From assembly GCA_011503125.2 (NCBI GenBank), contig WWBZ02000051.1:1364001-1428000 (forward strand): 64,000 nucleotides of DNA, given 5' to 3'. Source of the stretch: Botryosphaeria dothidea (Eukaryota > Ascomycota > Dothideomycetes > Botryosphaeriales > Botryosphaeriaceae). Made by a program: the position numbers and the translations under genes. The notes beneath the pieces are model-generated. The model ran no database searches and had not been told where the DNA came from. It saw only the letters and a program-made list of their open reading frames with translations. Positions 1-54,239 of the stretch are shown one piece after another (the first letter of the stretch is position 1; every line of letters begins with the position of its first letter).

Positions 1-1520
1 ATAGATCCTAGGCCTAGATCGACGAGGATTTTCTCTCTAGATAATCGACGTGCGAAGAATAGCAGACTCTTTACTCGCCGCGCGCGGCCACGATCCCTCA
101 CCTTAACTAGTTGGTAAGAACTAGGTATCTCGCTTTATCGACAACTAGCCTAAGCTTAAAACGAAATAGAATCGAAAGTTCTATTTATAACGCGTAAAAT
201 GTGAGGATCCGGACGCGATTAACGCGTGGTTTAAGCGCGTTTAAGAGACGCGTCGGTCGTATAGCATTCTCGACGACGATATTTATAACTTTAATAAGAC
301 AGAATTTATAATAGGTATAGTTACGATATCTAAAGTAGTTATAAGCTCCGATACGATCGGCCGAGCGGTCGTCGTGCAGCTAGGAAACCGGGAGTAAATA
401 ACGACGATTAAGGGTATTAACGCCTCCGGCTGGGCGATTCCGCCGTTCGTTATTCTCGTAGGAAAGGTGTACTAGTTAAACTAGTATCGAGGACTACCGG
501 CTAATTAGGTAATTACTATAAGCGACAACGGCTAGACGATAGATTAGCTAGGTCTTAAATAGATTAAGCATTTTAATACGCACACGGAATCTCGTACTAA
601 GGGAATCTACCGTCTGCTTATCCTCGACGGCCATAGTAGCTACGCAACGCCCGAATTCGACCAGTACTGCATGGCAAACAATATCGTCACGCTCTATATA
701 CCTACGCATACGTCGCATCTTCTCTAGCCGCTTAACGTTAGCTGCTTTTCCCCTCTTAAGCGCTCGTACGGTTAGGAGGTACAGGAAAGCGTCCGCCAGG
801 GAATCCACTATATCGATAAAGATAATTTTCTCACGATATACTTAAGGGTGCGCCCATTAGTCTTTACGGATTAAAACATTAGAAGCGGATTCCGAGCTAC
901 AGGGCTTATACCGTACGACCTATAACGCGTCTTATCGTCGCTCACCGTTACTAAGATACCCTCTCTACCAGGGACGGCGAACGGACAGGCACCTTAATAG
1001 ACGTTAGAAATACCTTATACTTTGGCTTAGCTAGAGCAGCAGACTCGGCTTGTACGGGAGCTTATCTAGCGCCAATCCCAGAGCCCGACAAACCAAGTAT
1101 TCAGCCAACTTATTAAGGGATATTAGATAGCGATGTATTTAGCTGTAATACTTGCAAAGGAGAATTCGGAGCTTCGTGCGGCTAATTAACGACGAAAATA
1201 AAAGCAGTAATACCGCCGAAGGTATATCGTATAGGGAGGCGCTTTATAGGCTTAGTAGGGGTAGTTCTTAGTTCAAAGGATAGAAAATAGGGAAGAAGAG
1301 GCTAATCAACGGGAATCGATAGCTGCACGACAACGTGCACCGCCGACGTGCAGTAATTATTATTTATAAGGCCACACGATTCGGCGCTATCCTGAGATTC
1401 AAAGAGCGGTTAGATAGGGTTTTTAATTAAATTCAAGGCGTTGTAGTGGAATATTTGTGCGAAGACGCGTCCTGGGTCTAGTGGGGTGCGCAGCTTACTA
1501 GGGTGCGCAGCTTACTGGTG
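1..1520 (+). pseudogene. RIP-mutated pogo/Fot1-like DNA transposon (transposase relic)
   Basis: One forward frame (codons in phase with 725-727) reads as a pogo/Fot1-family DDE transposase from about 130 to 1400. Visible landmarks, allowing for stops, are KCEDPDAI, DDDIYNF, GINASGWAIPP, SDNG, LLILDGHSSY, THTSHLL, PLNVSCFSPLKRSYG and a C-terminal Cys-rich tail. I see no frameshift. The damage is many TAG/TAA/TGA codons where Gln or Trp is expected (for example 725-727 and 773-775), which is the CpA-to-TpA, TpG-to-TpA pattern of repeat-induced point mutation on both strands. The third catalytic Asp is also lost (PLNV where PLDV is usual). CpA/TpG are scarce across the whole stretch, which stops abruptly near 1500. 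The 5' end lies outside the window. It cannot make a transposase. Confidence 0.86.
1484..1517. repeat. 17-bp direct repeat at the transposon edge
   Basis: Two adjacent copies of a 17-base unit beginning GGGTGCGCAGCTTACT, differing only in the last base, lie where RIP-like composition gives way to normal sequence. They probably belong to the 3' terminal repeat region of the pogo-like element. The matching 5' terminus is outside the window, so this cannot be confirmed here. Confidence 0.55.
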
Positions 1521-50726: not shown

Positions 50727-52794
50727 ATGAGCGCCCCTCAAGCAGGCCCGTTTCAGCCGACCGCTTCACCGGTGACTGGCGAACAGCCTGCCTCACCTTC
50801 CACCTCTCACCATGCATGCCATTCCCGCCAAGCCTCAGACTTGCGCACCCGTCCTAATCACCTCGGATTCCCTCATCCTATTATTACCCTTTCTGAAGTC
50901 AAGCGCCCGGCTCCGTCCGCTCCATCAACTCCTCATTTCACTGAGAAGACAGAGACCATTCAAGCTGTCCCTGCCGGTGCCAATCTTTTCAAGAACCCAC
51001 CACAAGAGTATATTGATTCGAATAGTCTGAGGCCTGAATACGGCAAATCGGGAACCTCCACACGAGTCATCACAAACTACGTAGCGGCAAAGGAGATGCC
51101 TACCAAGTTGTTCGACTACAGTATCTTATTCGGCTTCACCACTAATCCCGACAATGAACCCAAATCGGGTTTGAACAAAGATTTGAAGCGCCTGGCCGAG
51201 CTTCGACGCATGTTTGACAGTTTGCGCAAAGTCCAGCCGCTGGAGTGCCGCAATGACTGGTATGTACCAATTGTTCTTTGTTTTTCATTCGCTCTTAACT
51301 CACTTCCGATGCAGGGCCACCGACTACAAGCACATCTGGTCTGTCAACGAGCTCTTCCGCGGAGACACGTACTCTATTGCCGATCTCAGTTATATCAATC
51401 CAATTGGACGTACGGAAATCATTCCGCAGATCACGCTAAAGTACGAGGGTCAGCTTAATCTCAGTCGAGGTCACCTTGACTTGATTGAGGGTGGAAAAGG
51501 CGAAGGCGGCACTGATGTGGCCAGAAAGGCGAAAGCACTGAATGCGATCGTCTCCAATTACATGTGCCGTTCGACATCCACACCCATTCAACAACTCGGC
51601 GAAAACCGTTTCTTCCTGACCGACGCCTATGAAGATATGGGACAAGACAGCCCATTCGTTACCATACGCGGATACTTCTTTTCTATCCGCCCTGGCAATA
51701 ATCAGGTTTTCCTCAACGTCAATACGACCACTTCGGCTTTCTTCAAGCCCATACTGATCTCCGAGTTTTTTCGCATTATGCGGCTGCACAGCATGAAAGA
51801 CTGGGCAATTATGGGCATGTTGAAGAAACGGACGGTCAGAATTACGTGCGACAGACTCGTACCAGACCTCAACGAAGAAGATAAGAGAAGGAAAACGATA
51901 AGCGGATTTGGAGGGGTGCCATCGGAGCAGACTTTCACCGCCGGTGAGGAAGAAATTACAGTCTATGACTACTTCAATGGTAAAAGTCCTTATCTTTGTA
52001 TTTCTTAATAAGACGCCGACTGACGAGATTCAGCCACGAAGGATTGCCCTCTGACAAAGGACAGCAACATGCCGTGCGTGAATGTTGGTTCGTATAAGCC
52101 GGGCAGGGAGCAGTGGATCCCTGCGGAATTCTTGGAAATTACTTATCCGCAACCATACAACGCGATTCTTCCTCCTGCTTTCACGGACCGAATGATGAAA
52201 GTCGCTCTTCGTGGACCGGAGGAAAACGCCAATCTGATCGTCAACGAGGGTTTCGTGCACCTTGGAATCAAGAAAGACTCTATTGCAACTCAGAGAGATC
52301 TTATCCAGGAAGAAATCGGTTTCGACATTAATGATAAACTTATCGACATCCCAGCGCGCATTCTCAAGCAGCCCACTCTTCGATATTCGGATATCAAGGG
52401 CAAGGCTCAAACGGTTTCGCCGCGATTTGCAAGCTGGAATCTCGTTGACAAGCAGATGCGAAAGCAGCTCTTTGCGGTTTCATCCACCATACCTAGAATT
52501 GGCATCCTCACTCTGGGACAGTCTCGGATGGACCCTCGTGAACTTTCCAGGAGACTCAGCCAAATTCTTTCTGAACACAACATACGAGTGACAAACCCCG
52601 ATAAACCATGGCACAGGGCTTTCACCCCGCGACCGAATCCGGAAGGAAGCTTTGTAACTGCAATAAAGAACATCGTCAGCGAAGTTGAGAGCGAAATGAA
52701 GAAAAACGTAATCACGGTTGTTCTGCTATCAACACAGGACGAAAATCTATACTCTGCACTCAAGACGGTGTGTGACACATGGGGGATCCTCACC

Positions 52795-52802
52795 ATCTGC
52801 TC
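52795..52802. repeat. Target-site duplication, left copy
   Basis: ATCTGCTC directly before the element; part of the Argonaute codons for Ile-Cys-Ser. Confidence 0.92.
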
Positions 52803-53139
52803 CAGGGCTCGCAGTCAAGCGGCTTGCAAGCAGAGGACCCCCTCAAGCGGACGACAAGCAAGCGGGGTCCCGAGCTCCGCTTGCTTGAAATGCTTACAAG
52901 CGCTTGTAAGCAGATAGGGCGCCTAATACCTACCTAAGATAGCTTAGTCCCTTCTTAATTGGGATTCTTCGGGAGATCTTATCTGATTAAAAGATAAATC
53001 GACTCCGTTATAAGGACTAATCTACTACTCTTTTTACTATATTAGGTATATTTACTCACGTGATTCCGCTTGCAAGCGCTTCCAAGCAAGCGGAGGAAAT
53101 GGCCCGCTTGCAAGCAAGCGTCGCTTGTTGCGAGCCCTG
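52803..53139. mobile_element. Non-autonomous hAT-like MITE, 337 bp
   Basis: The element begins CAGGGCTCGCA and ends TGCGAGCCCTG, perfect 11-bp terminal inverted repeats, and is flanked by a perfect 8-bp target duplication ATCTGCTC. An 8-bp duplication and CAGGG-type ends mark the hAT superfamily. Both ends (about 52815-52915 and 53065-53130) are packed with CAAGC/GCTTG motifs in both orientations, the kind of subterminal repeats bound by hAT transposases. The middle is AT-rich and has no coding capacity, so mobility must have come from a transposase elsewhere. No RIP-type damage is obvious. No second copy was seen in the window. Confidence 0.92.
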
Positions 53140-53147
53140 ATCTGCTC
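53140..53147. repeat. Target-site duplication, right copy
   Basis: ATCTGCTC directly after the element. Removing the element and one copy restores an unbroken Argonaute frame (GILTICSASPPQKMNDQM). Confidence 0.92.
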
Positions 53148-54239
53148 CGCGTCTCCGCCTCAAAAGATGAACGATCAGATGCTGTCCAACATAGCACTGA
53201 AATTCTCCTTGAAAACAGGAGGAAGACCCCATCAAGTCGAGGGAATCCTCCGGGTTGTTGGCACAGACACCATGATCGTGGGAGCAGATGTCACGCATCC
53301 AGGGTCGACTTCCACTCCACACTGCCCCTCTGTAGCCGCGGCTGTCGCAGGCTATGACGAGCACGCGTTGAACTATTCAAGCTCGATGAGGTTACAAAGA
53401 CGCAACCAAGAGGTAATCATAGATATGCAGGAAATGGCCACTGAGCTGCTCAACATCTATGGCAGAAAGAACAAGAGGCTTCCGTCAAACATCGTTTTCT
53501 ACAGAGACGGTGTTAGCGAGGGGCAGTACGCCCAAGTTCGCAAGACTGAGGTTGAAGCGGTGGAGAAGGTCTGGATGGCGCTGAAGAATTCCGGCAAGCC
53601 TTCAAATTCTCCTAAAGTCCGAATTACCTGCATGGTTGTTGGAAAGCGCCATCACACGCGGTTCTACCCGATGAAGCCAGGAGACAGGGATCGGTCCAAC
53701 AACGTGATGCCGGGGCTAATTGTGGACTCCGTCATCACACACCCGTACTGCTTTGACTTCTTTTTGCAGTCGCACGCAGCTATTAAGGGAACAGCGAGGA
53801 GTGCTCATTACTTTCTGATTCGTAACGACATCAAGCTTAACGCTCAACAGCTGCAGGATCTTGTAAGGACCATCCACATTTCTGTTACTGCACCAGAGCT
53901 AATCACACTGGATGGCAGACCCGTTCCCTTTGCTATGCCTATGGCACTGCGACCAAAGGCATATCTTACTGCGCGCCGGCTTATCATGCCGACAAGCTGT
54001 GTGAACGTGGACGTTGCTTCATTCGGGACTGGCTTGTCAACCGCCCCACGCCCTCTTCAATGATTCGTCCGTACAACAAAAAAGATTCTATCGACGTCAA
54101 GGTCCACCAGAAGGACGAGGCGAAGCGTCTGATGGTGTCCCGTCCGTACAATATCTGGGAGACTGCCCAGGCTGGTGCTCACAAGGGCAGAAAGAACCCC
54201 TGGCACCCAAATTTGGACGACAAGATGTTCTGGGTTTGA

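What the first reader, a model, noticed from the sequence alone, without database searches (positions are those of the whole stretch)
52795..53147. A hAT-like MITE has inserted into the PIWI domain of an Argonaute gene
Seen directly: 11-bp perfect terminal inverted repeats (CAGGGCTCGCA / TGCGAGCCCTG), 337 bp, perfect 8-bp target duplication ATCTGCTC, dense CAAGC/GCTTG subterminal motifs, and a restored Argonaute frame when element plus one duplication are removed. A transposon breaking a transposon-defence gene is biologically striking and could mark an RNAi-defective strain.
Basis: partly seen in the sequence, partly recalled or inferred. Interest (0 to 1): 0.87.

Follow-up and report, generated by a model that had tools for sequence, protein, structure and literature searches.

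The report
Small transposon interrupts accessory Argonaute gene
In this Botryosphaeria-like fungus a 337-base jumping-DNA fragment sits inside one accessory Argonaute (gene-silencing) gene and very probably disables it, but other Argonaute genes remain readable, so it is a neat but ordinary gene disruption rather than proof that the strain has lost RNA silencing.

Summary
A 337-bp element (52803-53139) with 11/11 terminal inverted repeats and a perfect 8-bp target duplication (ATCTGCTC) lies inside an Argonaute gene (about 50727-54239) at the N-terminal edge of PIWI. It belongs to a real family: seven places in this 51.7-Mb genome have these ends (at most one mismatch) and perfect but different 8-bp duplications. 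A protein of an unnamed close relative (P0001; 465 of 482 residues identical) carries the uninterrupted site. Element plus one duplication is 345 bp, so the frame is kept, but five in-frame stops cut the protein before the PIWI catalytic residues. The flanking frame is otherwise open, so the insertion looks recent. 'RNAi-defective strain' is not supported: the gene is an accessory paralog, and open PIWI frames of a QDE-2-clade and a second Argonaute clade, plus Dicer-type and RdRP genes, are present. 'hAT-like' is likely from ends and duplication length, but no autonomous partner was found. A 2,009-bp copy is a family member with a nested Fot/pogo-type transposon, not the source.

The parts
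52795..52802 (+). left copy of the target-site duplication, ATCTGCTC
52803..53139 (+). 337-bp non-autonomous element (MITE); no ORF of 80 aa or more lies wholly inside it
   Evidence: sibling copies
52803..52813 (+). left terminal inverted repeat CAGGGCTCGCA
53129..53139 (+). right terminal inverted repeat TGCGAGCCCTG
53140..53147 (+). right copy of the target-site duplication, ATCTGCTC
52891..53088 (.). span of the longest internal inverted repeat (arms 52891-52914 and 53065-53088, 83% complementary), CAAGC/GCTTG-rich
52915..52917 (+). first in-frame stop (TAG) in the Argonaute frame; four more at 52924, 52945, 52984, 53011
50727..54239 (+). interrupted Argonaute gene (model made by eye: introns 51260-51314, 51980-52033, 53863-53918; start ATG 50727, stop ending 54239)
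   Evidence: ORFs; splice-site sequence; ArgoL1, ArgoL2 and Piwi matches; relatives
52034..52802 (+). part of exon 3 upstream of the element (ArgoL2 region to the edge of PIWI)
53148..53862 (+). PIWI part of exon 3 downstream of the element, with D, E, D and H at the slicer positions
   Evidence: which columns are catalytic is recalled

Best explanation
A short non-autonomous cut-and-paste DNA transposon (MITE), most likely mobilised by a hAT-type transposase acting in trans (inferred), jumped fairly recently (inferred) into exon 3 of an accessory Argonaute gene in a fungus close to or identical with Botryosphaeria dothidea. It duplicated 8 bp of target (shown) and keeps the frame through its length (shown), but the frame meets a stop 37 codons into the element (shown in sequence), so that the product would lack nearly all of PIWI including the slicer residues and is very probably a null (inferred). 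RNA silencing as a whole is expected to persist through the other Argonautes (inferred).
For: Ends and duplication. Family: seven places with perfect, all different 8-bp duplications: this one ATCTGCTC (337 bp), C47 GTCCACAG (357), C3 CTTCGAGG (311), C47 GTCAGTAG (354), C58 CTGCATTT (321), C58 TGTTGGAG (203), C2 TCCCCATT (2,009 with a nested element); both ends exact at 4 of 7, one mismatch at one end at 3 of 7. Empty site in P0001 and, at lower identity, uninterrupted homologous sequence in P0003, P0004, P0005 and P0006. Five in-frame stops. No stop in the 482 flanking codons; of 17 differences from P0001, judged against P0002, P0003 and P0006, 6 are window-derived, 3 P0001-derived, 8 unresolved. 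Redundancy: seven PIWI loci in nine rows; in a 28-row tree C47:208465 falls with Aspergillus QDE-2-type proteins (5 rows, 100/100) and C2:62923 with the common Dothideomycete Argonaute (7 rows, 100/100), the hit gene apart with Botryosphaeriaceae relatives (5 rows, 91/100, not starred).
Against: No autonomous element with these ends was found, so hAT is an inference. The longer sibling matches are only 81-89% identical, so no recent source copy was seen. No RNA data: splicing round the element is not excluded, and qualifying splice options are more numerous than in most resampled elements. Six against three derived changes leans, without weight, to the window side.
Confidence: 0.88

Rival explanations
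1. The element is tolerated because it is wholly or partly spliced out as an intron, so the Argonaute stays functional or becomes a variant isoform.
For: Element plus one duplication is a multiple of 3. Three in-frame, stop-free options with a fair donor, a CTRAY branch-like site and a YAG acceptor exist (52768-53178, 52770-53045, 52906-53178), against a mean of 0.22 in 300 resampled elements; 1.7% of resamples reach 3. The L. theobromae gene model P0002 lacks about 16 residues here, right after the homologous ALKT, as if a GTGTGT donor were used.
Against: All three options use flanking coding sequence and none lies inside the element; each removes about 10 to 22 conserved residues and two also leave element-coded residues in. 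The most intron-like stretch inside (GTAAGC 52906 to TTAG 53045) is 140 nt, not a multiple of 3 (read). The thresholds were chosen after the enumeration. The P0002 gap may be a gene-prediction artefact: another conserved stretch is missing from that model, and P0004, similar by eye, has the residues.
Confidence: 0.06
2. The strain is RNAi-defective because this Argonaute was the essential one.
For: A single Argonaute lesion can abolish RNAi in a fungal strain: Candida albicans SC5314 (PMC11047096, passages including the abstract).
Against: Three other PIWI loci have long open frames without stops in the match (C2:62923, C36:2266876, C47:208465), two of them in the main clades; RdRP and RNase III genes are present. 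B. dothidea LW-Hubei is reported with four Argonautes, two Dicers and three RdRPs (PMC7325678, passages including one from the abstract).
Confidence: 0.04
3. The family is moved by another superfamily that also makes duplications of about 8 bp (for example P, Merlin or MULE-like), not hAT.
For: No hAT with these ends found. That other superfamilies make 8-9 bp duplications is recalled.
Against: CAGGG...CCCTG ends resemble two resident hAT families (...CACCCTG); hAT dimerisation domains are frequent here (21 places).
Confidence: 0.12
4. Assembly chimaera or artefact.
For: The assembly holds duplicated stretches (C36 and C78).
Against: A perfect duplication and inverted ends with an exact empty-site counterpart are the signature of transposition; this locus was found once.
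Confidence: 0.01

Closest known systems
hAT-type MITEs (for example mar in Drosophila, PMC3517528; BniHAT in Brassica, PMC7385995; both seen only in the listing)
   Same: Short, non-coding, inverted ends and 8-bp target duplications (general features of hAT MITEs recalled)
   Different: Partner transposase not identified here; low copy number (12 places with both ends, 7 with perfect duplications; a lower bound)
Candida albicans SC5314 AGO1 inactivation (PMC11047096; passages including the abstract)
   Same: A natural strain carries a broken Argonaute while relatives carry a whole one
   Different: There a missense change in Argonaute and a shown RNAi defect; here a transposon insertion in an accessory paralog, no phenotype known
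RNA-silencing genes of Botryosphaeria dothidea LW-Hubei (PMC7325678; passages, one from the abstract)
   Same: Several Argonautes, two Dicers and three RdRPs in the same or a close species
   Different: Whether one of its four Argonautes is the ortholog of this gene, and whether it is whole, was not tested

Membership tests
MITE (non-autonomous DNA transposon) | short, non-coding, terminal inverted repeats | tested here: met
   337 bp, 11/11 ends, no ORF of 80 aa or more wholly inside
MITE (non-autonomous DNA transposon) | further copies with target duplications of their own | tested here: met
   12 places with both ends, this one included: 7 with perfect 8-bp duplications, 1 with 7/8, 1 with 6/8, 3 (two of them a duplicated pair) without a clear one
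MITE (non-autonomous DNA transposon) | empty site in a relative | tested here: met
   P0001, at protein level only
hAT superfamily | 8-bp target duplication | tested here: met
hAT superfamily | ends of CAGGG type as in resident hAT elements | tested here: met
   two hAT families here end in ...CACCCTG, judged from where their copies stop matching; a third pair (L051/L052) has an unclear boundary without it
hAT superfamily | autonomous copy with the same ends encoding a hAT transposase | tested here: inconclusive
   no exact 11-bp end in 21 PF05699 loci, of which about 1.5 kb on each side was held; a one-mismatch CAGGGCTCGCC recurs in one family with the same preceding 8 bases, inside its shared sequence, so it is not an end
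Argonaute | ArgoL1, ArgoL2, PAZ and PIWI domains | tested here: inconclusive
   PF08699 E 6.7e-9 and PF02171 E 6.8e-58 over their cut-offs; PF16488 E 1.1e-6 but 29.2 bits against a cut-off of 33.3; no PAZ match in the pieces scanned, exon 1 not scanned; relatives P0002 and P0007 do bear PF02170
Argonaute | slicer residues DEDH in the PIWI part | tested here: met
   alignments to Argonaute-2 and Argonaute-3 chains; which columns are catalytic is recalled
QDE-2 clade Argonaute | groups with QDE-2-type proteins | tested here: not met
   outside that group; C47:208465 is in it
Fot/pogo-type element as source of the family | the transposase in the 2,009-bp copy belongs to the family's own ends | tested here: not met
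   its inside occurs at four other places at 97-98%, all matches stopping at the inner inverted repeats; TA at both edges was read in the C2 copy only

The most novel reading that the evidence does not exclude
The MITE acts as a new intron-like piece: splice sites around and in it let some transcripts skip it, making a shortened or altered but translatable Argonaute isoform, so that a transposon has re-shaped rather than destroyed a silencing gene.
Probability: 0.05. Interest if true: 0.6.

Novelty: new member of a known kind. Interest (0 to 1): 0.3.

Why it matters
It documents a natural, probably recent, insertional allele of an accessory Argonaute in a Botryosphaeria-like plant pathogen, with a whole counterpart in a close relative. 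Isolates could be sorted by allele when Argonaute functions are compared. It does not show that transposons escape control in this strain: the rest of the silencing machinery is encoded.

Tried and rejected
Tried: (1) Reading the 2,009-bp place at C2 as the autonomous source; rejected because its DDE_1 transposase lies in a separately mobile element with four other copies. (2) Reading the end motifs at C36:3937410 and C78:3051822 as starts of long autonomous elements; the partner end lies 158 bp on, in a stretch duplicated between the two contigs; the long ORFs further on were not tested by profile. (3) Finding a hAT partner by domain, end motif and similarity: none; the best similarity was 26 bp at E 0.004. 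(4) In-frame splicing; the run gave 0 options because of my own end coordinate, corrected. (5) Other proteins carrying the element: the N-side piece gave 4 proteins, none with element-coded residues (sequences); the C-side piece gave 1701, 120 listed, the best 69% identical, so no near-identical carrier was listed. Both searches see proteins in 90% clusters and within a length range, so a carrier could be hidden. (6) The first paralog comparison used wrong strands and frame and was redone, with 21 of the 120 relatives, chosen by hand; rows L040, L034, L038 and Tothia have long branches and unsure places. (7) Papers: no listed title or abstract start described a MITE in a Botryosphaeria Argonaute (15 of 64 listed; 20 of 25; 3 of 3; 43, none found; 15 of 47; 12 of 32; 10 of 3,256). 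The library is partial.

Full report
What is there. The window is G000:C47:1364001-1428000 of a 51.68-Mb, 78-contig assembly. The Argonaute's nearest named match is a Botryosphaeria dothidea protein, P0007 (97% over the aligned part, 98%), so the organism is a fungus close to or identical with B. dothidea; I did not settle the species. The element lies at 52803-53139, 337 bp, with exact 11-bp inverted ends and an exact 8-bp duplication. The window holds no other such pair, and 20 Markov resamples hold none.

Family. A DNA search (14 matches) and a pattern search on the end plus a CAAGC motif (24 rows, the reversed control pattern giving 1 match) were paired by script. Twelve places carry both ends with at most one mismatch at one end. 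Seven have a perfect 8-bp duplication, each different; one has 7/8 (94 bp), one 6/8 (62 bp), and three (C36 and C78, a duplicated pair, and C1) have no clear duplication. Two further pattern rows (C1:4505781, C36:1668433) gave no pair with a matching duplication and were not looked at further. The copy number is a lower bound. The four longest matches to other places (181-273 bp) are 81-89% identical to the window copy. With flanks joined, only the Argonaute place of the seven with perfect duplications sits well inside a long stop-free frame (codon 259 of 564); at C58 (CTGCATTT) the site is at residue 230 of a 232-residue frame, and no frame across the other five exceeds 136 residues (introns not considered, and the left flank of the C2 place was only 152 bases).

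The nested case. The C2 place is 2,009 bp long; two of its open pieces match a Tc5-type DNA-binding domain (PF03221) and DDE_1 (PF03184). Four other copies of its inside, 97-98% identical, stop matching at its inner inverted repeats, which in the C2 copy are flanked by TA. It is therefore a Fot/pogo-type element inserted into a family member, and not the source of the family.

hAT or not. Ends and duplication length fit hAT, and two resident hAT families end in ...CACCCTG, while the boundary of a third pair is unclear. Twenty-one places carry the hAT dimerisation domain. None has the family's exact end in the stretch held; one family has a one-mismatch copy of the motif at a fixed internal place; similarity to the family copies is at most 26 bp, E 0.004. 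The transposase in trans remains inferred.

The gene. By eye the gene runs from 50727 to 54239 with three short introns (positions in the parts list). Pfam finds ArgoL1 and Piwi over their cut-offs and ArgoL2 below it; no PAZ match appeared in the pieces scanned, and exon 1 was not scanned. The element enters within a serine codon at the start of PIWI; the downstream part aligns with Argonaute-2 and -3 and QDE-2 chains, with D, E, D and H at the slicer positions (roles recalled). Insert plus one duplication is 345 bp, so the frame is the same on both sides, but five stops lie inside. The predicted product ends after 37 element-encoded residues.

Age and polymorphism. P0001, 549 residues, from an unnamed assembly, reads straight through the site and agrees with B. 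dothidea P0007 at the three window differences that P0007 covers. P0007 itself ends before the site and is uninformative about it. Across 482 residues 17 differ: 6 changed on the window side, 3 on the other, 8 unresolved, too few for a test of relaxed selection. Two protein searches with pieces beside the element listed no other carrier, within their limits. A recent insertion is the simplest reading.

Consequence. Nine PIWI rows at seven loci are found; three other loci have long frames without stops in the match. A tree of 28 PIWI rows places C47:208465 with Aspergillus QDE-2-type proteins and C2:62923 with the common Dothideomycete Argonaute; the hit gene groups with Lasiodiplodia, Diplodia and unnamed relatives (5 rows, 91/100, not starred). 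RdRP matches occur at four loci, two of them an apparent duplicate pair, and two of the five rows hold one stop in the matched frame; RNase III matches occur at four loci, three with two domains, two of these three an apparent duplicate pair. B. dothidea LW-Hubei is reported with four Argonautes, two Dicers and three RdRPs (PMC7325678; passages, one from the abstract). Nothing here indicates loss of RNAi as such, though I tested presence and open frames, not function.

Splicing. Of 64 in-frame GT/GC-AG options listed without regard to quality, three meet a stricter rule, against a mean of 0.22 in 300 resampled elements, 1.7% of which reach three. That is more than expected, but the rule was set after the first listing, and all three remove conserved flanking coding sequence. 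The L. theobromae model P0002 lacks residues at this very spot. This keeps the splicing rival alive at a low probability.

Verdict. A confirmed, well-formed MITE insertion in an accessory Argonaute gene; a known kind of event in a notable gene.

Noticed in passing
G000:C2:1489652-1491660 (L044:153-2161): A family copy with a nested, TA-flanked Fot/pogo-type DDE_1 element whose frame holds stops; four further copies of that element at 97-98% on C12, C47, C58 and C18.
   Followed up: yes
G000:C36 and C78: RdRP hits and degenerate family copies lie at matching spacing (about 547 kb) on both contigs, and the 6-kb stretches L042 and L043 give nearly the same ORFs: a large duplication or two haplotypes in the assembly. 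RNase III hits on C1 and C38 look like a second such pair.
   Followed up: partly
window 609-769: A fragment about 70% identical to the Fot/pogo-type DDE_1 region (row C47:1364609-1364769).
   Followed up: no
P0002 (Lasiodiplodia theobromae), against window 52768 onwards: The gene model lacks about 16 residues around the insertion point, as if an in-frame GTGTGT intron were predicted there; a possible exitron or a prediction artefact.
   Followed up: partly
L037/L041, L038/L039 and L040 (G000:C1 and C12): Further Argonaute-like loci, some with stops in the matched frame, which may be decayed accessory Argonautes; introns were not modelled.
   Followed up: no
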